DNA of 64,000 nucleotides from Brachycybe producta. Lineage: Eukaryota; Arthropoda; Diplopoda; Playtdesmida; Andrognathidae. Where the stretch lies: positions 528,268-592,267 of the forward strand of contig JAUPFP010000084.1 in assembly GCA_036925085.1 (NCBI GenBank), written 5' to 3'. The notes below the pieces were generated by a model. It was not told the origin of the DNA. It saw only the letters and a program-made list of their open reading frames with translations, and did not search any database. Made by a program: the position numbers and the translations under genes. This document shows, piece after piece, positions 699 through 62,639 of the stretch; within the stretch, counting starts at the first letter, position 1, and each line of letters begins with the position of its first letter.

Positions 699-983
699 AG
701 TGTTATAGAAACTAGAAGGGTAGCTCAATCACTTACGGTAGCTCATCTTTGATAATTAACTTTTTGTAGACAAAAATAACAAATATTGTCTTGAGTCATT
801 TTAAAACTGACATAAAAAGCTTATTTTGAAAGATAACAACGTGAAAATACCCTCTTAAGTGATTGTTCTACTCTTCTAGTTTCTAAAACAAGTTCAAGTT
901 TCTCTTCATTTTGCACCTGAAATAAAGAATAATCAAGAGTTCGAAGGGGGGGGGGCGTTTACACTTTTAAAAACCACCTTAAG
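699..983 (-). mobile_element. FB1 foldback element
   Basis: Left arm GAAACTAGAAGGGTAGCTCA; right arm AAGCTTATTTTGAAAGATAA...TTCTAGTTTCTAAAAC. Outer right end reaches CGTTTACAC...AACCACCTTAA and contains a 10-G run at 946-955. The left arm is truncated. The loop reads in reverse direction (…TCATTTTAAAACTGACAT). Confidence 0.85.
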
Positions 984-1009
984 ACGCAAAATTATGAGTG
1001 TTATGACAA

Positions 1010-1300
1010 ACACTAAAATGTTTAGAAACTAGGAGGGTAGCTCAATCACTTAATAGTATTTTTGTGTTTGATATCTTTCAAAATTAACTTTTTAGCGTAC
1101 ATTTTGTAAAAAAAATATTGGCTCTGCTTAAAGTTGGATCATTTTCAAACTCACATAAAAAGCTTATTTTGAAAGATATCATCATGAAAATATTCCTAAT
1201 TGATTGAGCTAAAATACATTTAAGTTTATTTTTCACTTCTGTAAGAAAATAATCAGAATTGGAGAGGCCCACACGTTTACACTTTAAAACTATCTCTTTT
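1010..1300 (-). mobile_element. FB1 foldback element
   Basis: Both arms are present (GAAACTAGGAGGGTAGCTCA and AAGCTTATTTTGAAAGATAT). Loop CTGCTTAAAGTTGGATCATT in reverse direction. The right-arm CTTCTAGTTTC block is deleted: the copy goes from GATTGAGCTA straight to AAAATACATTTAAG. Confidence 0.8.
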
Positions 1301-1502
1301 TTTGCTCTGTTTCTTTTATTGTAGTGTATTTTATAAAATAACTTTCAGAACTTCACCTATATCTTGAAAGTTTAGCAATAACAATAAACAAAAATAAATG
1401 AAAAAAATTTGTATACGAGCCATTTCAAGAAAAGAAAAGTGTAAATTTCATCATTTTATATAAAAACACACACACACATGATGTAATTTGCAAATAAATC
1501 TT

Positions 1503-1529
1503 CCCCCCCCCCCCCCCCCCAAAAAAAAA
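1503..1529. repeat. C18-A9 homopolymer junction
   Basis: Eighteen C (1503-1520) directly followed by nine A. A near-identical C16-A9 junction is at 45175-45199. Confidence 0.95.
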
Positions 1530-1945
1530 GCCCCATCTACTTTTTAACCCGATGTCTTGCTCTTTATAAACAAACATTTGACATTTTGAAAAATACACAT
1601 CAAGTTTACATTGAAATAAAAACCTCTTATTACATTTTATTCAAAATTGCAACCAAGAAAGAATTTTCCATTCAGTGGTTCAAATAAAACTTGTTAGATA
1701 AACAATTTGTAAAAAAAAATATATATAAAACATTTCTGAAATTTCTCAAGAGGGTATTTTAAAGACTAGAAAAGACATCTCATTGTTACCGCTTGAAAAT
1801 TGGTTGGCATTTTTTCACATTAAAAGTTTCGAGGGGAAGAGAGGGGTCCTTTTTCTCCCCTATTTTTTTAAATTTTCACCCCCTTAATGTTTCATTTTAT
1901 AAGATCTTTTCTATTCATTACTCCTGAGAACCTCCTTAGTAACAA

Positions 1946-1964
1946 CCCCCCCCCCCCCCCCCCC
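1946..1964. repeat. poly-C run (19)
   Basis: Uninterrupted C in otherwise AT-rich DNA. Confidence 0.95.
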
Positions 1965-2299
1965 TCCCCTCCTTACTTTTTATTCAAATGATATTGTCTG
2001 ACTCTTCATATTAACTTTATAGCTCAATTTTTCATTCTAGTCTTTTGTCTGTTATTGCTAAAACACACTTTGAAAAATTTGCATATATAAAAAACCTTCA
2101 CTTTACATAGTGATGTGTGTGTGTGGATCATTATTTGTGGTGGATAATATCCGCATTTCAAGTGAATGCGGATTTAAATGAAAATTCTCATATTTATCAG
2201 AAGAATCACGCAAATTTTTATAATTATTTATTTCAGAACTAGAATAATTAATTTGCTTTAAGTACTTTTAATAATTAATATATTTAAAAATTAAATGTT

Positions 2300-2600
2300 A
2301 AGCTAGTTTTAAAGTGTAGACGCTTCTCAAATTTTGACAATTCTTGTCTTTCAGTAGCAAAATTTAAAATAATTTAATAAACTAGAATGGATAGCTCAAT
2401 CACTTAAAACTATTTTCATTTTGATATATTTTAAAATTAGCTTTTTCTGTTCGAGTTTAAAAATGATCCAACTTTAACAAACAATATTTTTAAATTTTTT
2501 TTAAAAAGTTCATTTTGAAAAATTTCAACATGAAAAATACCCTAAGTGATTCAGTTACCCTTCTAGTTTCTAAAACACTTTCAAGCATATAATAATTTCG
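2300..2600 (+). mobile_element. FB1 foldback element
   Basis: Starts near GTTTTAAAGTGTAGACGC, includes CTAGAATGGATAGCTCAATC and ends ACCCTTCTAGTTTCTAAAAC. The loop AAAATGATCCAACTTTA is in forward direction. Confidence 0.8.
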
Positions 2601-2609
2601 CTCTTATGA

Positions 2610-2895
2610 ATCAGTTTGAAAATCAACAGCTCATAAACCATCTCAAGAAGCTAAATTAAAAGAAACTAGAAAGTGTTTTAGAAACTAGAAGGGTAGCTCT
2701 ATTAATCATTTAAGGCTATTTTCATGTTGATAAATAATCTTTCAAAATAAGCTTTTTTATGCGAATTTGAGAATGATCCAACTGTAAGCAGACGATATTT
2801 TTTAAAATGTTGTCTATAGAAAGTTTATTTTGAACGATATCAACTTGAAAACAGTATGAAGTAATTGAGCTACCCTTCTAGTTTCTCTTAAGAAT
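2610..2895 (+). mobile_element. FB1 foldback element
   Basis: Adjacent to the previous copy. GTTTTAGAAACTAGAAGGGT left arm, loop AATGATCCAACTGTAAGCAG, right arm GAGCTACCCTTCTAGTTTC ending abruptly at 2895. Confidence 0.8.
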
Positions 2896-3599
2896 AATTT
2901 GCGGATAATCCGCAACTTTTTTTTTAAGTTCTTATAACCCAAAAAAAAATTCGTCGGTTGCGCCGTAAGTTTTTTTTTCTAGCCTCCTTTTTTTTTACAG
3001 TGTTATTAATTTTAATAGTTGTTCCCAAAAGTATTATAAAAATGGCGTCCAAACTTTATTAAGCTTTTTTATTGCACCTTCTACTTTCTCATTGAGAAAT
3101 AGAAAAAAAAAGTAGAAAAAAACGGCCAATCACTGACTTTTTTTTCGTTGCTTAATATACCCCTCAAGTGTAATATAGAAAATCTTCAAACGACCTGTCA
3201 AATAATTAATAAAAAAAAACATTTAAGGGTCACCCAGGGGCACTTTTTTAATATAGGGATCATTTTTTGTGTGCTGCTAACTATATAAGGTTGCAGACTA
3301 GAATAGAACCGAAAAAATTTGCATATTCCTGTGAGAATAACTTGTTAAGTATTTTTTTTAGCTTAATTATGATTGTGTGTGTGCGTGTGGCCCCCCAATC
3401 CGCTCTTTTTTTGTATTGTTTAAGAATGTGAATAAAGCTCAACTTTGCTTAAATTTAGTTTTATTATTATGTTGGGTAATTTATGCAACAAAAAAAAAGA
3501 CTAATGAAGAAAGAGATTGCCATAAAAACCAGACTTAAAATCAGGCTCAAAAGTCAATCAATAATCTTTAAAGAACCTAAAAAAAAATTAAGGATTTTT
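2896..3599. other. no gene seen
   Basis: AT-rich filler with T- and A-runs and a short GTGTGTGTGCGTGTG stretch near 3374. Confidence 0.5.
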
Positions 3600-3898
3600 A
3601 ATCCGGTTTTTATGAACAGCTGATTTTTTAACTCAGAGAATTATTATCAGAATGGATAACTCAATCTTTCAAAATAAACTTTTTTATTGACACAAAATTA
3701 AAGAAATATCATTGGGTCATTTTTCATACTCAAATAAAAAAATTTATTTTGAAATATATCAACATAAAAATAGTCATAAGTGATTAAGTTACCCTTCTAG
3801 TTTCTAAAACACGTTCAAGTTTCTCTTGATTTTACACTTGAAAGACAGAATAATCAAAGAGTCCGAAAGGCCCCGTTTACATTTGAAAATCACCTTAA
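3600..3898 (-). mobile_element. FB1 foldback element
   Basis: Left outer end GTTTTTATGAACAGCTGATT; the left arm has lost much of its core. Right arm is complete to CGTTTACATT...ATCACCTTAA. Confidence 0.75.
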
Positions 3899-4466
3899 TA
3901 TAAACCAAATATAATTATTTTGAAACTGGATAAAACAGACTTGAATAATCAAAGTTATGTTATTTTAGTTCATTTATTGATCACTTGGTGGCGTTGGCTG
4001 TCCTTTCACTCATAGCTGAAGGTTTATTGTTATTTCATACATATTGTGTGTAATAACAAGATCTCAATAGGGAGAAGGTTTTAGTAAAAAAAAATATTGT
4101 GTAATTTAATTCATAATTAATAATTTTTAAAAAAATTAATAACTAGTATGAATTAAATTATACAATATTTAATTTACAATAATAATAATTTTTTGAAAAA
4201 TTAATTTTAAAAAGCATATTTTGAATAAATTTGAAAAACATTCTAAGCAGTACCGATAATTAATTTATATTTTATAAAATAAAATATAAATTATATATTA
4301 TAATTAGAATTATATATAATTATATATTTTTTTTAAATTGTCATTTTTCCATTTTTACTTCAAAATTTGTACACAGTATCAAAATTAAAATAAATAAGGT
4401 TAAATTGTTCGCGAACAGTGTTCGGTTCTAGTGTGGACCCGGCTTAAATAATGAGTTATACAGTAA

Positions 4467-4611
4467 ATATGTCGCATCCATTTGGTGTAATTATCCATTA
4501 CACGAAATGTATGTTCCTTTCGCGTTTTGCATCAGGCCAACTTATGTTCATTTCGCGAAATGGACATTCATTTTATGTAATAGACGACTACATTGGTGTA
4601 ATGCGACATAA
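4467..4611. mobile_element. small palindromic foldback element
   Basis: Left ATATGTCGCATCCATTTGG and right CATTGGTGTAATGCGACATA are inverted versions of each other, with further pairing around CATTTCGCGAAATG. About 145 bp. No clear target duplication. Not related to FB1. Confidence 0.55.
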
Positions 4612-5599
4612 TCTATATTTCAAAGTAAACGTTTTTTATTAAAGTTTGAATTGACGTTTTTATTTTCGACCAAAACACCGTGCAGTGGGAAAAAACCTAT
4701 ACTGCCATTTTTTTTTCAAACTTTGTGTTTATTTTCACGGAAAAAACAAAAAAAACCAACGTATCAATATTAAAAAAACACCTTTTATTAGCACTTATTT
4801 ACTAATATATTTTCAATTATTGCTTCTTAAAAGCCTCCAAAGCAAAAAAAAAAAACTTTCTAAAAGCCTCTCCTCCACAAACCCAATATTTACATAAAAA
4901 GTTGTCTCAAAATTATAAGTTTTAGACCTTTTTCTTTATGTGTTAAAGAAAAAAATGACCATTATCAAACACAATTAGATATTTTTTTGGGCTATTAATA
5001 TCCAAACCATATAATTATGTGGGACAAAAAAAGTATATTAAAATAAGTGACAAAAAAAAAACCCAAAACGTTTTATTATTATATTGTTCATTTTATTGAG
5101 TGGAGAGAGAAGAAGAAATTGCTCAAATTTTGATAATAATGACTATTACAAACAAAGAAAGATTATTTTTCATTGTATGTAATGTAAGGTAAGGTAAGGT
5201 AACAAATGGAAAGCAAAAAAAAAAAAAGTAGCTTAGAAAAATGACCATCATAATCATCTTGGACAATTGACTAAAGTGGCTTTGAGTCTTATATGATTAT
5301 TATTACAGCAAACACACACCAAATGGACACTGTGCCAGAGGGTCAATTTGTGCACTGCAGAAATTACCTTGTTTTTTTTTTGTATCGAGATGTTTACAAA
5401 GTGCGAAAAATAAAATCAATTATTTTGGCACAATTACTAAACAATCTTACAAAAAACACAAATTTCATAGTGAATAATGCACATTTTTTTAATAGACTAC
5501 CTTAAGATAGCTGAATAAATATTTATTTTGTACCTCTGGCAATGCTAACTGGATGTTTTCGAAAAATTTGGATGCAAAAAAAAAAAGATTATGTTAAAA

Positions 5600-5780
5600 G
5601 TTTTAAAAAATAAAACATTTTATAGTTCAGTTTGAAATTTAGGTTTTTTCATTGAAATTTCATGAAAAACTATTTTCGTCTTTCTTCAAACTGTCATAAA
5701 AAGTTTATTTTGAAAGATATCATCATGAAAAAAAAACCTTTAGCATTATTACCAACTATTCTAGTTTCTAAGACATTTTA
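5600..5780 (-). mobile_element. FB1 partial copy (right half)
   Basis: Holds TCATAAAAAGTTTATTTTGA, GATATCATCATGAAA and CTATTCTAGTTTCTAAGACA. The left arm is not recognisable. Confidence 0.65.
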
Positions 5781-6635
5781 ATTTTTTTTTTCGTTACGTT
5801 TCTCCAGAAAAACGTTCGCTTGAAAAATATAAATTCTCTCAAAACCGTAGGATGGAGGGAGGGGAAGAAACATTCTATGGAACACAAAAGCCACTGCACC
5901 GTCACGGGGTGTCACACTAGCAAGTTGTTAATTAACTCTAGAAAACTCTAGCCTCAAACCAGTCACTTAATTTGAAAAACAAAAAGATAATTTTGGCTGT
6001 TTTATTATTAATTAATTTATGATAAAAAATTATTATTCTTTGAGTTAATTAATAATCTTAATCAATTGTTTCGGTGTCTTAATGCCGAAATTAATTGTTC
6101 TTTTTTTCGTGCTTAATAAAACAAAAACTAATTTACAGTTGTATAGAAAATATATATGCATTTTACTTGTATGGTTTTAATGGCTGTTAGAATGAGGCCC
6201 CGCCCCTTATCTTAGAGGGCATTGGGACCATTGGCGGAGGGTGGGGAGTGTCTCAAACAATCTAATTTTGTCCAAACCGAATAATAATCATAAGGATGAA
6301 CATAAAGAATAAAAGATGATAGAGAGAAAGAGAGAGAGAGAAAAAAATCCTTCAGAAATTTCTCAATTAATTATTTACTAGAATGAGCATTGTTGAAAAG
6401 TAGAAGAAGCAGAGCAGCTCCAAAATATGAATGAATTGATTTCTTTATGTTTTTGCAAACATTAAGAATTTAGCAGAAAAACATTTGGTCAGAATTTTTG
6501 ATTCGTCAATTTTTTATTAGCAATTTATTATTATTTTTGCTTTTTTTTCAGTTTTAATTGTTCTAATTTAATTTTGTTTATAATTAATAATTAAAAATGT
6601 CGCGCTTCCTTTCTTCGAAGTAAACGTCTCTCTTT
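5781..6635. other. no gene seen
   Basis: AT-rich; a GAGAGAAAGAGAGAGAGAG patch at 6321. No supported feature. Confidence 0.5.
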
Positions 6636-6905
6636 CAGGAGTTAAAATTAAAAGAAACCTAAAAGTGTTTTTAAAAACTAGAAGGGAAGCCCATTTTACT
6701 TAAGGATATTTTCATGTTGTTATATTTCAAAATAAACTTTTAATGTTGATATATTTTAAAATAAGCTTTTTTGTCAGTTTTAAAATCACTTTAAACGCAG
6801 GACAATATTTTTCAATTTTTTTCTTAAATAAAAAGTTTATTTTGAAAGATATCATCAACGTGAAAATACTCTTAAGTGATTCTAGTTTCTAAAACAATTT
6901 TAATG
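6636..6905 (+). mobile_element. FB1 foldback element with internal arm duplication
   Basis: Left arm AAAACTAGAAGGGAAGCCCA. The segment ATGTTGATATATTTCAAAATAA is present twice in succession (about 6713-6740 and 6753-6772). The right arm ends TCTAGTTTCTAAAACAATTT. Confidence 0.75.
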
Positions 6906-7634
6906 TTGTTTTATCTCAATGAAGATTCTGTCTTTCAAATAAGCTGTTTATGTGAATTTGATACAATAGGTGAACCAGTATGGCGTCTATACACTGTGCG
7001 TGTTCTAGTGTTAAGACGCCATGTATGTACACTTAGTTGCTTCATACTCAACATAGTAGTCTTGTTATATTCGCTTTCTTTTCGTGCAAGTTGCACGACA
7101 GATTTACTAGTATTTAATAATTTATAATAATTTAATATTTTACTAACAAAAAAGTCCTTCCTAATTCGTATTAATGTCAATATGGCGAAGTAGAAAAAAA
7201 TCCTTTTATTCGGATGTTAGATTACAGAGTGAATAATATATTTACACATTAAAAGCTTCTAGTATTAAACGCTTATTTTTCTGTTTAAATATTAGAAATG
7301 TATTTCATTTGAAGCAAACATCTATTGACAAAACAGAAAACATTAAAATTCATGTCATTTGCTAGACACTTTTTTTTACAACAATTATTATTTGTTTGGA
7401 GACTGGAAAATCTGGTGTATTGTAAGGAAGCAGATATCAAACAAAACACTTCCTAAATATTAGAAAATATTATAAGTTATTGTTATATGTGTACAGGATG
7501 ACTCAAAATAGTTTCTATAAGAAATGGAACACACAAGACCACTTTTGCCTTCTGAACGACAGAATAAAACAATTGGCTCAATTATAAATAATTAAAGTAC
7601 ACTTTTTGTCATAAGCAACAGCAAGAAAAATTCT

Positions 7635-19368: not shown

Positions 19369-19706
19369 TCATATGGCTAATTGAGTTCTTGATTGATGAG
19401 CGCCATTAGGACACAATTTTGCATAAAAGTCTAAATGACTTGGCGACAAAAGCGCTGTCGATGGAAAACGTCGCATAGAAACGGTGGCGGTGGTGATTCG
19501 CGTTGTGTCAGCGGCCGCATCAGAGTCACGAACGTCGGGATGTTGCGATTCACGATGACGACGTAAATCAACTTTACGCTGAAATGCTTTATCACAAAGA
19601 CCGCAATCGAACGGCTTGTAGCCGGTGTGTTTACGCATATGAGTGATTAAGTTGGACGATTGACTGAACGCTTTGCTGCAAATTGTGCAAACGTGTGGTT
19701 TTTCAC
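19369..19706 (-). CDS. gfi1/sens: Gfi1/Senseless terminal coding exon (fingers 5-6 and C-terminal tail)
   Basis: Acceptor CTTTCAG|GTGAAAAACC at 19707/19706 completes the Gly codon of HTG and gives linker HTGEKP. Finger 5 is CTIC...[13 protein letters not shown] and finger 6 CGLC...[14 protein letters not shown]. After residue 579 comes a 56-residue Ser/Thr/Arg-rich tail ending AI, then TGA at 19371-19369. Vertebrate Gfi1 ends soon after finger 6, so the longer tail is a lineage difference or could mark another splice form. Confidence 0.94.
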
Positions 19707-22700
19707 CTGAAAGTTTTCAAAAAAAAAAAAAAGACCCTTAATAAATTTAAAATAAACTTTAAAAGAAAATAGCCTTACTGCAAAAGAAACTAGAATGTGA
19801 TTTAAAAACTAGAAGGGTAATTCCATCATGATATCTTTTAAAATAATAAGCTTTTTATGTCAGTTTATTATCAATAATTTTGAAAGATTTTGATCAAATA
19901 TGAGAACTTAAGTGGAATATTCAGCTACCCTTTCTAGTTTCTAACAAGAACAAGCTTTGAAAATGTTTCATCAAGTGTCAGCTGATCGCAACAATCTTTT
20001 GCAGCGTGGCGAAAAACAGGAAGAACGCGTGCACAAAACACGCGTTCTCTCCCTCTGAATACACAACATGCACAAAGAAGAAACTTACCCGTGTGAATAT
20101 AGGTGTGTTTTTTCATGTCCGATTTCTGATGAAACCTTTTTCCGCAATATTGACATGGATACGGCCTCGTGTCCGAATGAATGAGTAAATGGGTGGACAA
20201 AGTCGAAGACCGTTTAAAACATTTGCCACATTGTTTACACTGAAACGTTTTAGACGGCGCATGAATCGCCTTATGTTGACTGAGGCTGACCTCATGACCA
20301 AAGGTCTTTTTACAATCAAAACAAACATAGGGCCTCTGTCCAGTATGTGTCCTACGAGAATGGACCTCGAGCCCATGTGGCGTTCCAAACACCTTATGAC
20401 ATTTGGTGCAGGAAAAAGTATGTTCAGGATCATCTGGATTCAAAGTGTCCAAACTGTTGACCGGTAGTGGACAGTGGACGGATGACGGATTGATGGTTGT
20501 TAATCCGTTATCACGATGGTAATAAGGGTGGTAAGCGGCCAGAGAGCGCTGTTGTTGTTGGTGATGGTGGTGGTGGTGGTTGTGGTGGTCATGTGTGGCC
20601 GGAGCTACCAAACGCTTGCCACTTTCACCATCGTCCGAATAAGTCGGAGTTGAACTCCCTTCAGAATCAATTGCTCCCTGAGTTTCATTGTCCAGGGCTT
20701 TGGCCGGTGACCAAATTTTTGATGAAGGTGGAGATTTTATTAAATTACCCTTGATGGATAAATTCAAGGGGCCCACCACAGAGGGCCCCAAACAAGATGG
20801 CGACGGTGGCGAATCGCCTGTGGTTTTGCCATTGATTATTCCTCCACGAGGATTTCCAAATCCCTGATGAAGAAATCCACTAAAGTTGGCTTGAGTTGCC
20901 GGAAGTGGGGACGATGGCAGAAAATGGGATGCTTTTCTGTATTCTGTTTTAATTGACAATAAAAATAATGTTCGTTAATTTTAAAACTCCTTTAAATGTT
21001 GGGTTTAAAGTATAAACGCGCCCTACGAACTCTTCTAGTCTTTCAGGAGTAAAATTAACAAAACCTTAAAATAATTTTATAAACTAGAAGGGTAGCTTAA
21101 TTATTTAAAAATATATTCATATTGATATCTTTTAAAATAAACTTTTTTTTCAAATTCAACTGCCTTAAAAAGTTTATTTTCATAGTTTATTCTAGTTTAT
21201 TCTTTTACTATTCTAGTTTTCAAAAAAAAAATTCATATTTTTTTGCAAAGATACCTCTAAAAACCAGAAAAACTTAAGCAATTTATCTACCCTTCTAGTT
21301 TCTAAAACACTTTCTAGTTTTTTTTTTTAATGTTGCTCTTCTGACAATTTCAAAATCAAGTTATTCATTGAGCATCTTAAGTTGAATTATAATGTAGCCT
21401 CTAAGGGTTTTCACCCCCTTGAGAGGTTGAATGACATCCTCATTACTAGAAGAGTCAGCATGCAAACACGAGCTACAATTAAAGAGACTAGAAGAACTCT
21501 CTCAATCTGACATGTGTTACACCGGCACACAACACAAATTACTAACTTCTGTTAGGCAATAAGCACGTGCTTGCACCGTATAGATAACAATCAAAAGCCG
21601 AACAGCTGATAAAGCTACTCGTTTTTTTGTCCTAAGCTAGCGGAACAAATTATAGACCCAGAGAGACTCATCATAACCTCATAAAAGGGGGTCACAGAGG
21701 GACACAAAATTGGGACTGAGGATGGTCAACAGGTGGTTGATTTCAAACACAAGACACAGAAGAACCCTGTTATCAACTCAAACCCCCACCCCCACCACCA
21801 ATACCCTCTAACCAAACCCTCCTACCCTAAAAGAGTTCAAGCACTTTTCTTACAAACGTCCCCAAACGAGTTAAGAGAGACTGAGGGCTCAAAGGGGGTC
21901 GCGGCCGGGGGTCAGCTCAAAGAATTTCCTTGTTCAGATTTTTTTGAAGCAACTTTCAAAAAAACTACAGGACCACTTTGCGTCGTCACGAAGTGGTTGA
22001 CACGTCGCCTTGCTTCATACAAACCACTCGGTGGCTTGTGTCATGAACTAAATATAAAACTATGGCCTGATGTTGATACCGATTTCACACGAACCACTTT
22101 GCAGTGTCACAAAATGGTTAACGTGGCTTGCTTCACACGAATCACTCCGTGGCTCGTGTGAAGAAAGCCATATAAAACTATGACATAGACGTCGGTTCCG
22201 ACCACTTAGTATGGCCTTAGCCACAACTGACAAACAGGCAGATGTCGCCACATGTGACAGGACTCAACTATTCATCGTAATTGTCGTACAACAAACGGTG
22301 GCTGGTGTGAACACTCCTATGTAATAAATGGTCTGTTAAAAGCGACCACTATTTGTGGCGCCATAAAGTTTTTCGTGTGAAGCCGGCTATTTTTGCTTCC
22401 TTTACTCTTCTAGTTTCTACTTCTTAAAATTATTAGGAAACACGCTAAGATAAATCTAGAAACTAAAAACAACAGAAAACAAATAGCCAAAGTTAGTTAG
22501 AAACTAGAAGGGTAAATTAAAGATCACACCTTTGAACGTAAAACATTTTACTAGTTTGTTAAAACGTCCAACGAAGTAGGCCATTTTTAAACTACCATAA
22601 AACGTTTATTTTGAAAGATAACATCATGCTACACTCTTCTATGCTACTCTCTTACTCTTCCAGTTTCTAACAAACTATGAATTTCTTTTTAAAGTTTATT

Positions 22701-25700
22701 CTAACAAACTTTATACAGTTAATAACCATAAACCAAACTAGGAGTGCGCCACCTGGTGTTAATTTCTATCAAATTGCTAATAGTTAAAAGTGTGTGCTTA
22801 CCATTATTATGTAAAGTTGTTTGAGAAGTCCTAGTAAAAAGCGAAAATCCTAAATAACTAGGAGAGCAAAAAGGTGGACTCCAACAGGGTGGCCTCCAAG
22901 TGACCGGTGGCATGAACGGTTCACACGCCGGCACAAGAGCTGTCATTCGCGGCGAACGAGGTGAAGCGTACGATAAAGGAAAAGTACGACGAAAAGTGAA
23001 CTGAGGCGCGCAAGTGACGGGGTGAATGGTTGTATTAGTGGTCAAGATGGGAGTGACCAAATGACCATCATCTTCATCATCATTATCATTATGCTTTAAC
23101 GATGCTGGTGAAGAGCAATTAGAGGCAGGAGAGGCGCAAGACGAAGTCGCCGATGATGATGATGATGATGATGACGATGAACACTCTTTTTTTATTCTGT
23201 CGTCGCAGAACTGACCACTGTCCACTGCTTCAATTTCAATGTCCACTGAATCATCCTCATCATCATTGATGTCCACTTTGGTGACAATTTCCTGTCCTTT
23301 TTCTCCTCCTTCATCTGATGATATGTAATTGTTGTTGTTGGTGTCGTCTTCTTCTTCTTCTTCTTCAATGTCCATCTTGTGGTCACTCGTGTGGTCACTT
23401 TCACTTGCGTCTGAAACAATTCAGTTAGATTTTTGTCACTTTTTATAATTTTTTTTTTAAATTATTATCTTTTGAATAAATCTGAGATTTTGGAATAATA
23501 ACAATGAAATAAAAAAGGAAACAAAATTCGTAAAACTAACTTGGGTTTGGTTTTTTTTTTTCAAAATGCAAACAAGAAAAATTCGTCATGATTTTTCATG
23601 ATGATGATGCCATTTAATCAAAGGTAACACAGTTACACCTATGCAAACGTTGAATAAAGGCTAAACTAGAAAAGTGCAAACACACTTAAAGCTAAACTAA
23701 CTCTTCTCGATCACTTTCTTTTAGCATTTCTTGTACCAATTTACCACCCTATTGTAACTATTGTAAATTTAGACACAGAAAAGCTAAAGTGGACAACAGA
23801 AAAGAATTAAGAAACTAAAACATCTAATTAGCATTTGTTTAGTTAAAACTCGTTAAACTGAATAAGAGCTAAACTAAACAAGGAATGATTTGGAAAACAG
23901 CGCTAAACTTAACAAAAATAACTAAACTAGAGTTGAACTAAATAATTAACTTCACTAGTTTAGTTAGTTCTTGTCGAGTTTAGCTCGTGTTTAATTTAGT
24001 TTCTGTTCAATTTAGCTCTTTTATCTCGAGTCGAACAAAGGCTAAATTGAGAAAAACGTAACCCTGAGCTGAATATGAAAATCAACTTTTCTAGAGCTAA
24101 ACAAGAGCTAAACACTGAACCAAAAACAAAACAAAAGTTGAACTGAACAATTAACTTTCAAGAGTTTATCTCATTCGTTTAGCTCTTGTTTAATTTAATT
24201 TGTGTATAGTTTAGCTCTTTAGTTTGAATTTAAAAAGAGATTAGACAAGAGCTAAAAACTGAACATAAAACTAAACTAGAGTTCAATTTTTTTATAAACA
24301 TTTAGCTTCTTAAGTTTAGAAATAAACTAAATCAAAGGTAAATTTAAAACAAGGCTAAAAGTAGACAACAACTAAGAGTTGTTGTAGTTGTCCAGTTTAG
24401 CACATTTTTATGCCATTTTGTTCCCATTTTTAAAGTTCCTTTTTCTTATTCCCTAGTTGAAAATGGTGACATAAACCCCCGCCCACTCAATTTTCTCTTA
24501 TAATATTTAATAAATAAATAACACTTTATATTTAAGATTTCTTTACTAATATTAATCCTATGGGAAAAATAAATAACATTTCTCTAATCTTAAAAGAATT
24601 TTTTTTTGAGAAAAATAAGGAAAAAAAAATCTTAAATATAATTTTGAAATGTTTAAATTTGGTGGGAAAAATAATTGAATCCATTTCACACAAATTTTAA
24701 TAATAATCAAGGCCAGAAAAAAGTAATCTCTCCAATTGGAAATTTTTCACCGTCAAAATGAAATATGAAAATTAGGAATTCTTTAAGTAAACTTGAAAAA
24801 TTATCTCTTTTTAAGATGGTTTAATATGAACTATCATCAACGGTCCAAATTCTGATTATTCATGTCTTTCAGAAGAGCAAAATTGAGAAGAAGAAAAAAA
24901 AAAACTAGAAAGTGTTTTAGAAACTAGAAGGGTTTTAAAAGGCAATTTCATATTGAAATCATTCAAAATAAACTTTTTACAGACCAAAAATTAAAAAAAA
25001 ATCGTCTGTTTAAAAGTTGGATCATTTTCAAACTTGACACAAAAAGCTTATTTTGAAAGATAACAACATAAAAGTAGTGACTGAGCTACCTTTCTAGTTT
25101 CTAAAACATATTCAAATACCTCTTCATTTTGCTCCTAAAACATAGAATAACTGATACGTTCTAGATTCGTTAGAAACTAGAAGGCGTAACTCAATTGTAA
25201 TTTCATGTTTATATCTTTTAAAATAAACTTTTTATAGTTTTTATAAGTTTGAATATGACTCAATTTGAAACAGATTGATATCGTTTCAATTTTTGTCTAT
25301 AAAAAGTTTATTTTGAAAGATATCAGAACATTCTAAATGCGAACACTAAAACTGTTCTAGTTTCTAACACTTTCAGATTTCTCTTTAAAAATGAGTAAAA
25401 CTAAGTTAATAAAAAACAACTAACCTGATTCAAATTAAATAAGTCAAGGGAATGTTTACTTTTATTTAAAGAAACCTTTTTTTTTTTTCTACAGATTTGA
25501 AATCCGTGGAAAAAATCACAGCTGTCTTATTGAAATTTCAACCTTATTGTATTTATTTGACTGGACTTTGAAATCTTCTATTTTGTAAAGATTTATTTGA
25601 AACATTTCCTGTATTTTGAGAATTTGTTTTAATAAAATAAGAAAACCGCAAATATAAATATTAAATATTTAGGTTAAGTTCTGTTTTTCTTAAGTTGAGA

Positions 25701-51687: not shown

Positions 51688-51695
51688 GAAAAATG

Positions 51696-51899
51696 ACAGG
51701 CAATTAGAAATCGGGACATAGAAGTTGGCTCCGCCCTTGTTATGACGACCGGCAACTTCTAATTGGTTGGTTATGTAGTCCAACGTCACATGCTCCGCCC
51801 TTTTCAACGTCGAACCAAACAACAAACCAATTAGAAGTTGCCGGTCGTCATAAAAAGGGCGGAGAAAAATTCTGTATGTCCCGATTTCTAATTGCCCGT
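51696..51899. mobile_element. 204-bp foldback transposon with 8-bp target duplication
   Basis: GAAAAATG at 51688-51695 and 51900-51907. Arms of about 75 bp: left ACAGGCAATTAGAAATCGGG...GACGACCGGCAACTTCTAAT, and its near-perfect reverse complement on the right. The 8-bp duplication suggests hAT. Arms are so similar that the element looks recent. Confidence 0.8.
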
Positions 51900-52494: not shown

Positions 52495-52758
52495 TAAGAT
52501 GGTTTATGAATACTTTTGATTATTCTGTCTTACGGAAAGACAAATTTTTTGTTAAAAAAACTAGAAAATGTTATAGAAACTAGAAGGGTAGTGTAGTTCG
52601 ATCACTTAAGACTATTTTCAAATTGATTATCTTTCAAAATAAGCTTTTTATAAACAAAAATTAAAAACTATATCACCTGTTTAAAGTTGGAGGTTCCTTT
52701 TCAAACTGCCATAAAATGCTTATTTTGAAAGACGTCAATGTAAAAAAAAGCCTTAAGG
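52495..52758 (-). mobile_element. FB1 foldback element
   Basis: TTAAGATGGTTTATGAATAC, TATAGAAACTAGAAGGGTAG, ATCTTTCAAAATAAGCTTTT, GCTTATTTTGAAAGACGTCA. The right arm stops at GCCTTAAGG. Confidence 0.8.
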
Positions 52759-52889
52759 TAGCTTTATAAGTATTTATTTCGTTTAGGTCCTCCCAGATGG
52801 CGCGCCTGTGTCGCTATTATGTTCTATAGGAGGTTTATTCCCTTCCTTATCCGCTGTTTTGAGAAAATTTATATTTTTCAACCTAATGT

Positions 52890-53390
52890 TTTTTTTTTTC
52901 AGGAGAAACATTACGAAAAAATCCTGTAAGTGTTTTAGAGGCTAGAATAGTTGGCGATAATGCTAAAAGTTTTGTCATGATGATATCTTTCAAAATAAAC
53001 TTTTTATGTTGTCAGTTTGAAAAAGGTGAAAATAGCTTTTTTATGAAATGTTAATAAAAAAAACGAATAAACGGGACATTTTCAAACTGAACTATAAATT
53101 GTTTATTTTTTAAGATATTGCCATGATAAAACTTAACATAATCTTTTACCATTCTAGTTTTGAAAACAATTTGAATGTTTTTAAAAAAAATACAGTTTGC
53201 TTGACGTTTTTGCGTCCAAATTTTACAAAAACGTCTAAAAAGCAAAGATTATCCACTGCAGTGGCGCCATCCAGTGGGGACAAAAGCAAAATAGATGTCT
53301 ATAGAACCACCCTTCTAGTTTCTAAAACATATTCAAATTTCTCTTTAATGTTTCCTTCAAGAAAGTGTCAAAGAACACACTTAAATCACT
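52890..53390 (-). mobile_element. FB1 subfamily copy plus FB1 right arm
   Basis: GTTTTAGAGGCTAGAATAGT, GATATCTTTCAAAATAAACT, TTTTACCATTCTAGTTTTGA (52890-53172), then GTGGCGCCATCCAGTGGGGA and a separate right arm CACCCTTCTAGTTTCTAAAA (53310). Confidence 0.65.
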
Positions 53391-54234: not shown

Positions 54235-54530
54235 AAGATTTAAGATTGGTTTATGAATTGCTGATTTTAGAAAATTTTCTGATTATTTGATGAGTAAAAA
54301 TGAAGAGAAACTAGAAAGTGCGTTAAAAACTAGAAGGGTAGTTAGCTCAATCATTTAAGAGTAATTTCACGTTTGATGTATCTTTCAAAATAAACTTCAA
54401 GTTGGATCATTTTCAAACTATTGCATAAGAAGGCTTTTATTTTGAAAGATATTTAACGTGAAAATATTCTTAAAGCGATTCAGTTGCCCTTCTAGTTTTT
54501 AAAACAATTTCAAGTTTCTTATAAGGTTGT
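54235..54530 (-). mobile_element. FB1 foldback element, first of a head-to-tail triplet
   Basis: TTAAGATTGGTTTATGAATT, TTAAAAACTAGAAGGGTAGT, loop AAGTTGGATCATTTTCAAAC, GTTGCCCTTCTAGTTTTTAA. Confidence 0.8.
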
Positions 54531-57040: not shown

Positions 57041-57316
57041 GAAACTAGAAGAGTTATTTCACAATAGTTTCATGTTGATATCTTTCAAAATGAACATTTT
57101 ATAGAGAGAAATTAAAACATCGTTTGCTTAAAGTTGTATTATTCTCAAACTAACACAGAAAACTTATTTTGAAAGATATCAACATGAAAATAATATTGAG
57201 TGATTGAGTTACCCTTCTAGTTTCTAGAATATATTCAAGTCTCTCTTCATTTTGCACTCAAAAGATAAAATAATCAAGAGTTCAAAGGACATTTACACCA
57301 TTTAAAACCACCATAA
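57038..57316 (-). mobile_element. FB1 foldback element
   Basis: AAGAAACTAGAAGAGTTATT, GATATCTTTCAAAATGAACA, loop CGTTTGCTTAAAGTTGTATT, GAGTTACCCTTCTAGTTTCT, ending TTTAAAACCACCATAA. Confidence 0.85.
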
Positions 57317-57663
57317 TATATAATAAATAAGAGAAAGACTTTTTTTTTCAACCTTGCACCTGAGAATTTTTTTTTTCTCTTTCAAAATTTCATAAACTTT
57401 CACTACAAAAAGAAGAAGAGGCCATGGACACCTAGAAAAGGTCATGGTCAGCTGACCTCAGACCCACACGCGCACCTGGCCATTTTTCGTGAGAAAACTG
57501 AAGAGTTAAAAAAGGGGTAAAAATAAAGAAACCAAAATTAAGAATTCAAGAGAAGACATCAAATGTCAAAAATGATTTATCAAATAGAAAATATTACGTA
57601 AAATTCTAACTGTAAAATTTAATATTTTCTAAAAAAAAGAAAAATTTGTAGACAAAATTTATT

Positions 57664-58335
57664 TTAAGGTGGTTTTTTAAAGTTGTGAAACGCGTCTTCA
57701 ATTCTTTTAGGTGCAAAATTAAAAAAAAACTAGAAGGGTAGCTCAATCACCTAATACCTATAGTACTCACACGTCTGATAATTTAAATGCATTTAAATAA
57801 TAAACGTGTTCTACAGAGCCCTGTGAAGGCCAAACGAACAATATGTCGTCGAATTCAATTTATTCAGTTAATAATCTGAAAATATTGAGTTAATACTTAA
57901 CTATAATTTATATAAACTATTGATTTAGTATTTCAATTTTAAGATATTAATAATAAAGTCAACTTTTTATTTGGTTCGACATGTCCTTAACTGGATTCCG
58001 TATAATTCACACCTAAACACATTTAATTTGAATTCATTTAACTCATGTGTGTGTGCAAGGTATAAGGGTATTTTCATGAAACTATCGTTTAAAATAAGCT
58101 ATTTATAGACAAAATTTTAAAAATATCGTCTGCTAACAGATGAATCATTTTCAAACTCGTGTAAAAAGCTTACTTTAAAAAAGTGTTAGAAAGTAGAATC
58201 ACTTAATTGTAGTTTCATGTTTGATATATTTCAAAATAAACTTTTCATAGAACTAAGTTGTTGTATGAAAAGTTTATTTTGAAAGATATCAAAACAATTA
58301 AATAATTGAGCTACCCTTCTAGTTTCTAACCACCT
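57664..58335 (-). mobile_element. FB1 element(s) interrupted by the PIF/Harbinger-like element
   Basis: Outer left TTAAGGTGGTTTTTTAAAG, AACTAGAAGGGTAGCTCAAT, then copy B, then AAGGGTATTTTCATGAAACT, loop CGTCTGCTAACAGATGAATC, a second left arm (GTTAGAAAGTAGAATCACTT) and final right arm CTACCCTTCTAGTTTCTAAC. Two merged FB1 copies seem likely. Confidence 0.75.
57755..58062. mobile_element. PIF/Harbinger-like non-autonomous element, copy B
   Basis: 308 bp between TAA duplications (57752-57754, 58063-58065). TACCTATAGTACTCACACG start, GTGTGTGTGCAAGGTA end. High similarity to copy A over the whole length. Inserted in CTTAAGGG of an FB1 left arm. Confidence 0.8.
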
Positions 58336-58849
58336 TATGTATATATTTGAATCTCTGCACCGGTGTGGTCTTAACAAAATTCACGATAACCTCCTCCTCC
58401 TCCACCCCACCCCCAAAAAACTTCCCATAAAACATTTATAGTTTATTATTGAATATTTCTCATTTTATAAATATAGAAAAAAAAGCATCAATATCACATT
58501 TTATATTTTGTCGTCTTCAAATTTCCGCTTTATCGAATATTTTGACACCCACCTTCCTTCCTCCTTTTATTATTATTGCCAATTTTAAAAGAGAAAATAG
58601 CTCAAATTGTAGTAAAAATGTAATAAGAACCAGAAAGGTAAAAAAAGAACAATTTTTGATATTGTGTTTATAATAATATATTAATAAATAATAAAACCGA
58701 CTAATTTTAAATTGAATGGAGGAATTTTCATAATTGCCACAAAATAACCTAAAAGTGGAAAATCAATTATTCCAGAAATTCACTAGTCAATCTTGTAAAA
58801 CTACCAATTACTAGCATTTTAGGCAATATGCAATATATATAACGCATTA

Positions 58850-59150
58850 AGGTGGTTTAAAATAATTGTAAAAACCCGCCAAACTCTTTAATTATTTTTG
58901 GCTTTCAGGTACAAAATGAAAAGAAATGTGAAATGTTTTAGAAACTAGAAGGGTTGCTGGATTACTTAAGAATATTTTCATATTCGATATCTTTTATAAT
59001 AAGTTTTTTTTAATCTTTTTTAATAAGTTTTTAAACAGAAGTTATTTCTTATTTTTCTAAAAAAAAGTTTATTTTGAAAGATTGAAAATAACGACGAAGT
59101 AATTCAGCTACCATTCTAGTTTATAATAAACTTTAAATTTCTCCTTAGCC
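58850..59150 (+). mobile_element. FB1 foldback element
   Basis: Outer left TTAAGGTGGTTTAAAATAAT, GTTTTAGAAACTAGAAGGGT, AAAAGTTTATTTTGAAAGAT, CTACCATTCTAGTTTATAAT. Confidence 0.8.
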
Positions 59151-59679
59151 TATGAATACTAAAATCGAGCGATTTGTTATAAATTGACTATAGTTACTTT
59201 GCAAAACAATTGATTTTACACTTTGCCGTCCATTATATGCAGTATATATTTGTATAAAATAATAAAAGAAGAAAAGAGAAAACCCCACGGATCGTTCATT
59301 ATTCAACATTATTTTCATTCTCATCTCTAATTCTTTTCTAATAAAATTCTATTCTTTACTAGAATAAAAATGACAATATAAAAAAAATCCAATAATTCGG
59401 TGCTTTTTTAGCCTTGGTTATCTTTTTAAACAGAGCTTTATTATATTTATTGCAACTTAACTCCACCTACAAAAATGCGTTTTCTACTCTCTATTTATTG
59501 AGACAAAAGATCTGTGTGTCTGATATCACCTTTTGTGATACAAAATAAAACACAATATTCGATTTTGAAGCTACAATTTGTAACTATATAATAGTGTTTG
59601 CAGAGTGTTCCAGAAGTCAGGTATCATTGTTGGAAGATCATAACTAAGTCATTAGATAGGACGTCGAGATCCTTGCGGA

Positions 59680-59955
59680 ATGGTCTCAGGACTGGCCTGT
59701 GGAATGGTCTGCAAAATGGCCCGAGGAAAAGCCTGGAAAGGAATTGTGGAAAAGCCTGTGGAATGGTCTGTAAGATAGCCTGAGGAATGACCTGTGGAAG
59801 GAATTGTAGAATAACCTGAAGAATTCTCTGTGGAATGGCCTGAAGAATGGCCTGTGGAATATCCTTGCCAAAAGACCAGTGGAAAGGATTGTTGAAAGAC
59901 CTGAAAAATGGCCTGTGAAATGGCTTGAGGAAGGGATTTTGGAAGGACTTGTCTA
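59680..59955. repeat. degenerate 15-bp minisatellite, GGCCTGTGGAATGGT type
   Basis: About 18 units of GRCCTGWGGAATG with variants GAATTGTGGAAAA. Period 15 keeps one frame open on each strand, giving repetitive PFHRPFxRxF or GxWNGLxN peptides; no start context or similarity supports a gene. Confidence 0.75.
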
Positions 59956-60049
59956 CATCAGGAACAGTTTTGGACACACTGAGCACGTTCTTGTGAATAA
60001 TGGCGCCATCTATAAAAAGTAATAAAATAAACTAGTACAAAAAGAAACA

Positions 60050-60202
60050 ATGACACTCGCTTAACGATAGGAGGAAAGCTCTTATCCTGAAAATCGTATC
60101 GTTAACCGAATCATCATTGAAATAAATGTACTTATATTGGTTTCGTCAACTACATTATAGCGAGGTATCGTTCTCATATGTAACGTTAAGCGAGGTATGA
60201 CT
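60050..60202. mobile_element. possible Tigger-like miniature element (about 153 bp)
   Basis: TGACACTCGCTTAACGATA at the left and CGTTAAGCGAGGTATGACT at the right are imperfect inverted repeats; the internal AGCGAGGTATCG repeats the motif. AGTCATACCTCGCTTAACG resembles Tigger-type ends (CATACCTCG). Confidence 0.45.
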
Positions 60203-60667
60203 TTACTTATGATCAATGCCAGACATTATGAGACATTCTGTATAATGAAAACCTTGCTACCCATTATCCTTTTAAACTTTACAATAGAAGGTATATCATA
60301 TAAATGCTTTATTATGTTTCAAATTGAACAATTAAGGGAGGGGGGTGAAACTTCAAAGAGAGGGGCGATCCCCGGGGAGGGGGATGAAGGGGAGAACCGA
60401 GGGGAATCTTCCTTTTTTTAATAAATTCAACTCATTGTAATCATCTATAAAATTATTACTCTTCTTTTGTGTTTAAAACTCATCCGTATAATTTTGCAAA
60501 AGTAACAAAATATCTTGTATTATGAACAATTTCCGTCTTTAACAATATAGTAGATACGTGAATTTATAATATAAAATCAATTAAAGATGCTATAATTAGT
60601 AACTATCAATTAATTTAACTAAATTCTATTCATTAGTTGACAATAATAGGAAATAGAATTATCAAAC

Positions 60668-60958
60668 TCACTTAGAACTCTGGTTATTCTACGTTTTGGA
60701 AGCTACACTAAAGAGAAATTGAATGCCTGTTAGAAACTAGAAAGGTAGCTCAATCATTTAAAGGATATTTTCATGTTAATATATTTCAAAATAAGCTTTT
60801 TATGTCAGTTTGAAAGTACAACCCAACTTTAAGCAGACGACATTTTAAAATATGTTTTCTATAAAAATTTATTTTGAAAAATATCAAAACATGAAAATAC
60901 ACTTAAAAGTGATTGAGCTACCCTTCTAGTTTTTAAAATACTTTCAAGTTTCTCTTAA
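60668..60958 (+). mobile_element. FB1 foldback element
   Basis: CTCTGGTTATTCTACGTTTT, GTTAGAAACTAGAAAGGTAG, loop CCCAACTTTAAGCAGACGAC, GAGCTACCCTTCTAGTTTTT. Confidence 0.85.
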
Positions 60959-61305
60959 AGTGGTTTTAAAGTGTAAACTTCTGTCAAACTCTGGTTTTAT
61001 TCTGTCGTTCAGATACAAAATGAAGAGAAACTTGAATGTGTTTTAGAAACTAGAAAGGTTAGTCGCAATCACTTAATGGTATTTTTCATGTTGATAATCT
61101 TTCAAAATAAGCTTTTTATAGAAGATCAGTTTAAAAATGATTCACCTAGAAATAGGTGACATTTTTGAGTAAATTTTGTCTATAAAAAGTTTATTTTTTA
61201 AAAAATATCAAAATGATAATATCCTTAAATAATTGAGCTACTCTTCTAGTTTCTATAAAACCCTTTGCAGTTTCTCTTAGTTTTCCTCTTAAAAAATCAT
61301 CCAAA
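60957..61305 (+). mobile_element. FB1 foldback element with clear outer end
   Basis: AAAGTGGTTTTAAAGTGTAA, GTTTTAGAAACTAGAAAGGT, ATCTTTCAAAATAAGCTTTT, TATAAAAAGTTTATTTTTTA, CTACTCTTCTAGTTTCTATA. Head to tail with the previous copy. Confidence 0.85.
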
Positions 61306-62139
61306 ATAACTACTAACTTTCTAAAAAAGATTTAGGTATTGTGCACATTGCCTAAAACGTCATTCATCAGGCAGAATGACAATGAACTCGACATTTTTTC
61401 TCTCTCGCCAAATTGACTAGTTGTTGTGTACAATGACTAATTTCTGCCAATTTTGGCGGTAACCTTTTAAGATTAATATTCTTATCTCTGTGTCTCTCCC
61501 TTTAAACGTCAGAAGAAGAAAAAGTAATTTAGTTTTCATTTTAGAAAAAAAATAAATAAATGTAAAGTGTGTGTAATGCTGCGTAATGTGTTACAAGGGG
61601 GAACTTGTGGTGTATTGCGGTGATAGCCAATTACAAGGCGCGAGTTTGCATGTAAAACGACCATAAGATGAAACTACAACAAAAAAATGTTATATATATT
61701 TCATCATTACAATTGTATTTTGTATCTTTTTTTCTTTCTTTAACATATATTTCCCCAAAGACATACATAACGTAAGTGTATTTATGCGTGCCTATATGTA
61801 TATTTGCCCAATTGCCCATTATTCAAAACAACTGTCCATTTTTTGCCATTTTTTATTTTGCCAAAAAAAAAAACATTTATATTCACAAACTGACATCCAC
61901 ACTTATCATATATAACATTAGATATGCAAAAATCATGTTAAGAATTTCTTTTTGTTTCTATTTTTTCTAGTATTCTTCCATAACTTGAATAACTTCTTCC
62001 TGAGAAACTGTTTTACATTTTCTTTCTTTTTCTTAAATTAGAATGTCATAACTTTTCTTTTACCTATTTTTGTAAATTTTATTCAAAATGAATGTAAATT
62101 TATCTGCATTTTGAAATAAAACTCAAAGAGGGGAAAAAA
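61306..62139. other. no gene seen
   Basis: AT-rich, low complexity. Confidence 0.5.
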
Positions 62140-62390
62140 CGAAAGCGTTTTTATTTTGGAAACTAGAAGTGTAAATGAATCGCTTAAGTATATTTTCATG
62201 TAGCAGGTTTTTAGCAGTTTTTTTAAATGTTTTTAGACTTTTTTAGTCCAACTTGAAGTGAAAAAAGATGGAGAATTTTAAATAAATCTAAAATAATTTT
62301 AAGTGGTTCTTTTTCTCTTCTAGTTTCTTAAAACACTCAATTTCTTCTTACTGTTGCTTATTAAGCAGAAAATCAGAATAATAAATTTCA
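62140..62390. mobile_element. diverged FB1 copy
   Basis: GGAAACTAGAAGTGTAAATG, CGCTTAAGTATATTTTCATG; right TTTCTCTTCTAGTTTCTTAA. Confidence 0.65.
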
Positions 62391-62435
62391 AATTTTCATT
62401 TATAAACGTATATCAAATATACAGTAAAAGCCTTT

Positions 62436-62555
62436 AAAGTAATTCATTTACTCTTCTAGTTTCTAAAACATTTATAAAGTAATTCGTTTACTCTTCTAGT
62501 TTCCAAAACATTTATAAAGTAATTCGTTTACTCGTCTAGTTTCTAAAACATTTAT
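62436..62555. repeat. three exact-period 40-bp tandem units of an FB1 right end
   Basis: AAAGTAATTCGTTTACTCTT then CTAGTTTCTAAAACATTTAT, starting at 62436, 62476 and 62516. Units differ at only a few bases (C/G in TTCATTT/TTCGTTT, CTCTT/CTCGT, TTTCT/TTTCC). A partial fourth (AAAGTAATTTAT) and another right end (CATCTTCTAGTTTCTAAAAA) follow. Confidence 0.9.
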
Positions 62556-62639
62556 AAAGTAATTTATAAAGTAATTATCGACCCATCTTCTAGTTTCTAA
62601 AAAAAACACTTATTGAAAAAACACACAAGAGAAAACTCA

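What the first reader, a model, noticed from the sequence alone, without database searches (positions are those of the whole stretch)
699..62610. One foldback transposon family (FB1) repeated about 50 times and shaping the whole locus
The pair GAAACTAGAAGGGTAGCTCA / TGAGCTACCCTTCTAGTTTC, each followed inward by GATATCTTTCAAAATAAAC, recurs every 1-2 kb. Arms of about 130 bp enclose a directional ~60-bp loop. Two outer-end types are seen: TTAAGGTGGTTTTAAAGTGTAAACG and TTAAGATGGTTTATGAACAGC. No copy codes protein. Ends with TTAA suggest piggyBac- or Kolobok-type mobilisation, but this is inference. I do not recognise it as a known family.
Basis: partly seen in the sequence, partly recalled or inferred. 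Interest (0 to 1): 0.75.

Follow-up and report, generated by a model that had tools for sequence, protein, structure and literature searches.

The report
Old TTAA-inserting palindromic MITE family
The repeats are old, non-coding, hairpin-shaped DNA transposon copies that inserted at the four letters TTAA, an ordinary kind of genome parasite that is unusually dense here.

Summary
A profile built from the copies finds 67 fragments covering 13,439 bp (21%) of the window, and none in the reversed or shuffled window. The 20-base core occurs exactly 3,766 times in this 295-Mb eukaryotic genome, suggesting roughly 25,000 fragments. The element is a palindromic MITE of about 370 bp: arms of about 155 bp, a directional loop, and a sharp outer boundary TTAA|GRTGGTTT with two end types.

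Among 30 loci with an FB end at an arm's internal TTAA, three hold an insert between two halves of an older FB1, and removing insert plus one TTAA restores a continuous FB1; a fourth fits less well. The inserts revealed a related family, FB2; one FB2 in this window interrupts an FB1.

Purine ends at TTAA fit Kolobok. They do not fit piggyBac: three of the four intact local piggyBac groups, where ends could be read, show TTAACCC. No transposase with FB ends was found, so Kolobok membership is unproven. Arms decay independently (no sign of gene conversion). The mechanism is ordinary; whether the family is already named could not be tested (no Dfam or Repbase).

The parts
657..978 (+). FB1 copy, A end at 978/979
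   Evidence: 220 bits
979..1275 (-). FB1 copy abutting the previous one
   Evidence: 167 bits
2302..2642 (-). FB1 near full length, A end left, B end right
   Evidence: 188 bits
2645..2886 (+). FB1 copy abutting the previous one
   Evidence: 191 bits
3664..3894 (+). FB1 half with A end
   Evidence: 142 bits
5598..5898 (-). FB2 partial copy
   Evidence: FB2 214.6 bits against FB1 69.9
6626..6912 (.). FB1 pieces (2 rows)
   Evidence: 78 and 89 bits
7604..7813 (+). FB1 fragment
   Evidence: 53 bits
7911..8005 (-). FB1 weak fragment
   Evidence: 16 bits
10034..10167 (+). FB1 fragment
   Evidence: 85 bits
16205..16489 (-). FB1 copy
   Evidence: 142 bits
19781..19985 (+). FB1 fragment between reading frames of the zinc-finger gene
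   Evidence: 74 bits; frames
20998..21346 (-). FB1 pieces (2 rows) in the zinc-finger gene region
   Evidence: 110 and 48 bits
22479..22699 (-). FB1 fragment in the zinc-finger gene region
   Evidence: 82 bits
24827..25166 (-). FB1 copy
   Evidence: 209 bits
25169..25386 (+). FB1 copy abutting the previous one
   Evidence: 106 bits
25710..25830 (-). FB1 fragment
   Evidence: 80 bits
25838..26168 (-). FB1 near full length, A/B ends
   Evidence: 147 bits
27029..27373 (-). FB1 fragment
   Evidence: 38 bits
27540..27831 (.). FB1 pieces (2 rows)
   Evidence: 37 and 63 bits
27853..28131 (-). FB1 copy
   Evidence: 115 bits
28140..28184 (+). FB1 weak fragment
   Evidence: 26 bits
29727..30042 (+). FB1 copy
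   Evidence: 180 bits
32476..32692 (+). FB1 copy
   Evidence: 112 bits
33889..34017 (+). FB1 arm and part of loop
   Evidence: 97 bits
34109..34485 (-). FB1 pieces (3 rows)
   Evidence: 16, 83 and 118 bits
35903..36241 (+). FB1 pieces (2 rows)
   Evidence: 20 and 76 bits
36988..37198 (+). FB1 fragment
   Evidence: 83 bits
38342..38643 (-). FB1 copy with A end
   Evidence: 121 bits
38665..38945 (-). FB1 pieces (2 rows)
   Evidence: 19 and 86 bits
39724..40058 (+). FB1 copy
   Evidence: 217 bits
40056..40326 (-). FB1 copy abutting the previous one
   Evidence: 157 bits
41140..41219 (+). FB1 single arm
   Evidence: 64 bits
42939..43064 (+). FB1 fragment
   Evidence: 56 bits
43095..43332 (-). FB1 copy
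   Evidence: 152 bits
43353..43443 (-). FB1 weak fragment
   Evidence: 27 bits
44548..44744 (-). FB1 copy with A end at about 44763
   Evidence: 103 bits
44766..45054 (+). FB1 pieces (2 rows)
   Evidence: 67 and 45 bits
47328..47512 (-). FB1 fragment
   Evidence: 95 bits
50255..50554 (-). FB1 copy, well preserved hairpin
   Evidence: 211 bits; DNA fold z -9.0
52496..52756 (+). FB1 host copy (B end at 52496) interrupted at its internal TTAA by FB2
52757..53314 (+). FB2 copy nested in the FB1 arm; right-hand TTAA missing
   Evidence: FB2 268 and 121 bits; sequence
53315..53365 (-). remaining arm of the FB1 host after the FB2 insert
   Evidence: row 53301-53365, 33 bits
54285..54532 (-). FB1 chain, member 1 (B end at 54243)
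   Evidence: 156 bits
54525..54802 (+). FB1 chain, member 2
   Evidence: 189 bits
54826..55124 (-). FB1 chain, member 3, starts near an internal TTAA of the arm
   Evidence: 185 bits
55750..56023 (+). FB1 copy
   Evidence: 183 bits
56023..56278 (+). FB1 copy abutting the previous one, A end at about 56305
   Evidence: 178 bits
56661..56808 (-). FB1 fragment
   Evidence: 39 bits
57040..57299 (-). FB1 copy with A end at about 57313
   Evidence: 174 bits
57689..57756 (-). FB1 weak fragment
   Evidence: 29 bits
58063..58333 (-). FB1 pieces (2 rows)
   Evidence: 60 and 91 bits
58851..59148 (-). FB1 copy with A end
   Evidence: 147 bits
60665..60964 (+). FB1 copy whose right arm stops at an internal TTAA
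   Evidence: 214 bits
60960..61307 (-). FB1 copy starting at that TTAA (A end)
   Evidence: 217 bits
62101..62383 (-). FB1 fragment
   Evidence: 72 bits
62422..62564 (-). 40-bp tandem array made of an FB1 arm piece
   Evidence: TRF 62435-62564, period 40, 3.2 copies; FB1 rows of 23 and 15 bits

Best explanation
FB1 is an old, very abundant, non-autonomous DNA transposon: a palindromic MITE of about 370 bp that moved by cut-and-paste into TTAA, duplicating the TTAA. A transposase supplied in trans, most likely of the Kolobok superfamily, recognised the ends GRTGGTTT...AAACCAYC. Shown here: palindromic anatomy, common boundary, TTAA as target, nested insertions with TTAA on both sides, and a second family (FB2) with related ends and core. 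Inferred: cut-and-paste itself, the Kolobok identity of the enzyme, and that both families used the same enzyme. Chains of abutting copies probably arise from later insertions into TTAA sites inside earlier copies, followed by small deletions and local tandem duplication; copies then decay independently.
For: Sharp boundary: the end queries began inside the TTA, yet TTA is conserved and conservation stops beyond it; 40 of 74 ends keep TTAA exactly, and -3 T is present in 58 of 74. Nested insertions: 30 of 50 genome-wide matches of 'arm cut at its internal TTAA + FB end' were read; 23 of 30 have the FB1 core upstream. In L046, L056 and L059, with insert and one TTAA removed in a script, the host gives one continuous FB1 hit (184.5, 147.5, 209.1 bits; halves apart 35.6 and 126.7, 26.7 and 98.8, 51.9 and 135.1); L057 gives a hit to model 158 only (78.3 bits, left half 59.6, right half not significant). 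FB2: 20 of 20 fetched copies share the end, 19 of 20 hold a core motif. In the window FB2 interrupts an FB1. Ends GG or GA: Kolobok has 5'-RR and YY-3' with TTAA duplication (PMC9587614, passages). Arms decay alone: identity within an element 0.864, between elements 0.867, p 0.70, 61 palindromes, a few of them units of the same arrays.
Against: No transposase carrying FB ends was found: THAP (PF05485) gave 106 matches; I read 5' flanks of two multi-copy groups (4 copies), where the shared sequence does not start with TTAAGRTGG. The left TTAA was in the search pattern, and the right one in the motif I scanned with, so only the host's resumption is independent. A blind scan of the 30 loci for the host arm resuming at model 108-136, with no TTAA asked for, gave 5 rows: TTAA at L056 and L059, TTGA at L060, neither at L045 and L065; it missed L046 and L057. 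TSD TTAA with end GG and TSD TA with end AGG cannot be told apart at one palindromic site; the conserved -3 T favours TTAA. The right end of L059's insert stops at an inner TTAA, short of the full end. Many chain junctions are not at TTAA.
Confidence: 0.75

Rival explanations
1. FB1 is a piggyBac-mobilised MITE.
For: Same TTAA target; the genome holds piggyBac genes with open frames of 559-624 codons (93 matches).
Against: I grouped the intact genes into four by score and frame length. Two groups show paired ends TTAACCCATT and TTAACCCTTTCAG (L097/L098, L099/L100); one shows a right end that reads TTAACCCTTT inward, by eye, its left end not seen (L076). FB ends read TTAAGRTGG. In the fourth group (L101/L102) no matching pair of ends was found in the stretches read.
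Confidence: 0.1
2. The chains and arrays show a replication or recombination product (foldback-driven template switching, rolling-circle or satellite growth), not transposition.
For: Tandem arrays with periods of about 300 and 330 bp in L026 and L019; a solo-arm array, L035, whose whole unit was found at one place among the 42 listed matches; many chain junctions off TTAA.
Against: Copies with a common boundary lie on many contigs (45 listed places on 18 contigs); nested inserts leave empty sites that can be restored.
Confidence: 0.08
3. A host-maintained hairpin with a function, such as a small-RNA precursor or regulatory element.
For: Stable hairpin: z -9.0 against shuffles for one copy folded as DNA.
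Against: No Rfam family at gathering score in the window; weak hits are to many unrelated miRNA hairpin models, each far below its cut-off. Arms of one copy are no more alike than arms of different copies.
Confidence: 0.04

Closest known systems
T2-MITE / Kolobok non-autonomous elements of Xenopus (PMC6004289, passages seen)
   Same: TTAA target, purine-purine ends, non-coding copies of great number, MITE-borne tandem repeats.
   Different: T2 ends are AGGRR; FB1 ends are GRTGGTTT and the element is nearly all palindrome. No transposase with FB ends found.
piggyBac MITEs
   Same: TTAA target site duplication.
   Different: FB ends do not start with CCC; in this genome piggyBac ends could be read in three groups and do.
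KolobokP (PMC9587614, passages seen)
   Same: Kolobok ends; solo units; tandem multimers.
   Different: KolobokP has long terminal direct repeats, and that paper reports finding none in arthropods or vertebrates; FB1 has inverted arms.
Drosophila FB foldback and Galileo (recalled; Galileo papers seen only in search listings)
   Same: Long inverted arms, small middle.
   Different: Arms here are about 155 bp, with TTAA target; Drosophila FB makes longer target duplications (recalled).

Membership tests
MITE (non-autonomous DNA transposon) | Short, non-coding, terminal inverted repeats, high copy, target duplication | tested here: met
   About 370 bp; longest stop-free stretch of the consensus 41 codons; 3,766 exact cores; TTAA duplication
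Kolobok superfamily | TTAA target site duplication | tested here: met
   three loci clean, one partial; caveats
Kolobok superfamily | Termini 5'-RR and YY-3' | tested here: met
   GG or GA after TTAA; FB2 GG
Kolobok superfamily | Autonomous element with DDE/E transposase and matching ends | tested here: inconclusive
   106 THAP matches; flanks of 2 multi-copy groups read, no FB ends; no Kolobok transposase profile was at hand
piggyBac superfamily | TTAA target site duplication | tested here: met
piggyBac superfamily | Ends of the local piggyBac type (TTAACCC) | tested here: not met
   TTAACCC in 3 of 4 intact groups, one of them by its right end only; FB ends GRTGG
PIF/Harbinger (Tourist) | 3-bp TTA or TAA duplication (recalled) | tested here: not met
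   Fourth base conserved and empty sites restored with TTAA
Drosophila FB foldback | Arms built of short direct repeats (recalled) | tested here: inconclusive
   The tandem repeat scan of the window lists only scattered short arrays inside FB1 copies; not tested copy by copy
Drosophila FB foldback | Target duplication longer than 4 bp (recalled) | tested here: not met
   TTAA
Named family in Dfam/Repbase | Sequence match | not testable with these tools
   No such library at hand

The most novel reading that the evidence does not exclude
FB1, FB2 and kin form a lineage of palindromic TTAA elements whose own arms carry several TTAA sites, so each copy is a landing pad for the next. Such self-nesting would build chains and seed satellites, making the family grow locally without an autonomous partner nearby.
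Probability: 0.1. Interest if true: 0.5.

Novelty: new member of a known kind. Interest (0 to 1): 0.28.

Why it matters
It turns a guess about TTAA mobilisation into a supported target duplication, and gives ends and a second related family. With these one could look for the missing transposase and date the bursts. For annotation it warns that about a fifth of this locus is transposon-derived hairpin DNA, which miRNA and repeat finders could misread.

Tried and rejected
Arm homogenisation by gene conversion: rejected, within-element identity equals between-element identity. Preference for inserting into its own copies: in the window 8 of 21 ends abut other FB1, 5.6 expected from random TTAA sites, p 0.16, so not shown; the 8 include 37036, which lies inside an FB1 row and may be an artefact. 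Loop direction tied to end type: of 7 elements one tied, 5 agree and 1 disagrees, and the agreement is opposite to how I had joined ends and loop in my model, so no claim is made; the six 'B..A' rows are biased by the model and not used. Coding interior of FB2: 20 of 40 listed hits were read 300 bp inward; 19 of 20 hold an FB2 core motif and L080 carries another insert before the core; longest stop-free stretches 43-90 codons, so no sign of a gene. L035 tandem unit as a clue to an autonomous element: only C9 matches the part outside the FB1 arm at length. miRNA homology: weak hits to many unrelated hairpin models, none at gathering score; no paper in the held library has 'mir-9746'. Core 20-mer in prokaryote genome contigs and viral contigs: 0 exact matches each. 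Literature: six searches; none of the listed titles and abstracts named this family, and sequences cannot be searched in text. Two papers were seen as passages (PMC6004289, PMC9587614); all others only as listings.
Full report
The window is the end of a 592-kb contig (C84:528268-592267) of a 295.3-Mb eukaryotic genome in 442 contigs. On the minus strand at about 19.4-23.4 kb it carries reading frames of a C2H2 zinc-finger gene. Gfi-1 (2kmk) matches at 116 bits over 55 residues, though longer multi-finger chains score higher; the Gfi-1/senseless reading also rests on recall. The host is probably an animal; I did not identify it further.

Observation. The core 20-mer occurs 45 times at up to 3 mismatches, none in shuffles, and the inner motif 64 times. 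A profile built in three rounds from the window and loci L001-L044 finds 67 non-overlapping fragments in the window, 13,439 bp or 21%; the reversed and the shuffled window give none. In six further 10-kb samples the counts were 12 (next to the window), 0, 0, 2, 2 and 9, so density varies strongly by region. The exact core occurs 3,766 times in the genome and 9 times in the window, where the genome average would give 0.8. Scaling by the ratio of fragments to exact cores in the window plus those six samples (92 to 14) gives about 25,000 fragments and 4.9 Mb, 1.7% of the genome; this is rough.

Anatomy. The consensus is about 370 bp. From outside in: TTAA, then either GGTGGTTTTAAAGTGTAAACG (A) or GATGGTTTATGAACAGCTG (B), a shared part around CTCTTGATTATTCTGTCTTTCAG, the core GAAACTAGAAGGGTAGCTCAATCACTTAAGG, then GATATCTTTCAAAATAAAC and the loop. 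TTA was not in the end queries, yet it is conserved, and conservation falls off outside it, in 46 A and 28 B ends. The loop is directional: 25 forward, 26 reverse, 10 undecided of 61. One copy folds as DNA with z -9.0. The core arms average 92.5% identity to consensus over 61 palindromes, 90.7% over the 17 in the window; since loci were chosen by good matches, the true mean is lower. Left and right arms of one element are no more alike (0.864) than arms of different elements (0.867), Wilcoxon p 0.70: no sign of arm-to-arm gene conversion.

Target site. A pattern joining the arm up to its internal TTAA (AATCACTTAA) to an FB end (GRTGGTTT) has 50 exact matches in the genome. I read 30 of these; 23 of 30 have the FB1 core directly upstream. 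L050-L052 share a flank, as do L053 and L054, so they are not independent. In three loci on different contigs the host FB1 clearly resumes on the far side: L046 (insert of 560 bp), L056 (composite of 1,138 bp) and L059 (297 bp, its right end stopping at an inner TTAA). With the insert and one TTAA removed, each gives a single continuous FB1 hit. L057 (531 bp) has TTAA followed by a stretch like the host arm, but its far half is not significant by itself. The left TTAA was in the search pattern and the right TTAA in the motif I scanned with, so the host's resumption is the independent evidence. A blind scan for resumption without asking for TTAA found L056 and L059 with TTAA, L060 with TTGA, and L045 and L065 with neither; it missed L046 and L057. 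A further case lies in this window: FB2 at about 52757-53314 inside an FB1 whose arm stops at the internal TTAA; on the right the TTAA and some 15-20 bp of host arm are missing.

FB2. The inserts in L046, L057 and L067 are a related family with ends like TTAAGGTGGCTTTATAGATATTTATTTTG and a core GTGTTTTAGAAACTAGAATAG...GATATCTTTCAAAATAAACTTTTTATG. A 63-base query gave 1,515 candidates, of which the best 40 were scored; I read 300 bp inward from 20 of the 40. All 20 share the end, 19 hold at least one core motif, and L080 carries an FB3 insert before the core; longest stop-free stretches are 43-90 codons.

Which transposase. TTAA target and purine-purine ends are stated Kolobok features (PMC9587614 and PMC6004289, passages seen). 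The genome holds piggyBac genes (93 matches). I grouped the intact ones into four; two show paired TTAACCC ends, one a right end of that type with the left end not seen, and in the fourth no pair was found. THAP domains, usual in Kolobok transposases, give 106 matches; in two multi-copy groups, two copies each, the shared sequence does not start with FB ends. The remaining THAP matches were not examined. So FB1 works like a Kolobok MITE, but membership is not proven.

Chains. Among 198 retained fragments in the window and L001-L044, 57 neighbouring pairs lie within 40 bp, L022 left out. Some junctions are exactly at TTAA; others are not and look like deletions or local duplication, as in the arrays of L019, L026 and L035. 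Insertion into its own copies is not significantly above what its TTAA content predicts in this window (8 of 21 against 5.6, p 0.16).

Verdict. A real, abundant, old TTAA-inserting palindromic MITE family with at least one sister family. The kind is known; whether this family has a name could not be tested.

Noticed in passing
window about 51698-51892; L009, L018, L035, L070, L080, L103: A separate palindromic family (FB3) with ends near ACAGGCAATTAGAAATCGGGACRAACAGAAGTTGGCTCCGCCC; 29 end matches in held sequence at up to 3 mismatches; nested in FB2 in L080.
   Followed up: partly
window 19369-23420, minus strand: Zinc-finger gene, probably Gfi-1/senseless type, with FB1 fragments between its reading frames.
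   Followed up: partly
L011 about 1360-1860: An FB1 copy flanked on both sides by the same inverted outer sequence (GGTGGGTCCAGACAAGAACAG), joined at an inner TTAA of the FB1 end.
   Followed up: no
L026, L019, L035 (C9:5.902 Mb): FB1 turned into short tandem arrays (about 300 and 330 bp periods, and solo arms with an unrelated piece of about 45 bp).
   Followed up: partly
G000 C1 6141124, 12714159, 13384735; C26 525118: Four piggyBac genes with the same score and open frames of 620 codons, which may mean recent activity.
   Followed up: partly
G000 C2, C6, C18, C19, C20, C23, C92, C95: A multi-copy THAP-domain element: 10 matches of similar score; the two compared are 98.7% alike over 636 bases, the shared part starting TTAGACTATTACTCTACTGG.
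   Followed up: partly
L021 and L022 (C190, C115): Two contigs carry the same copies at the same positions; likely retained haplotype or duplicate contigs.
   Followed up: no
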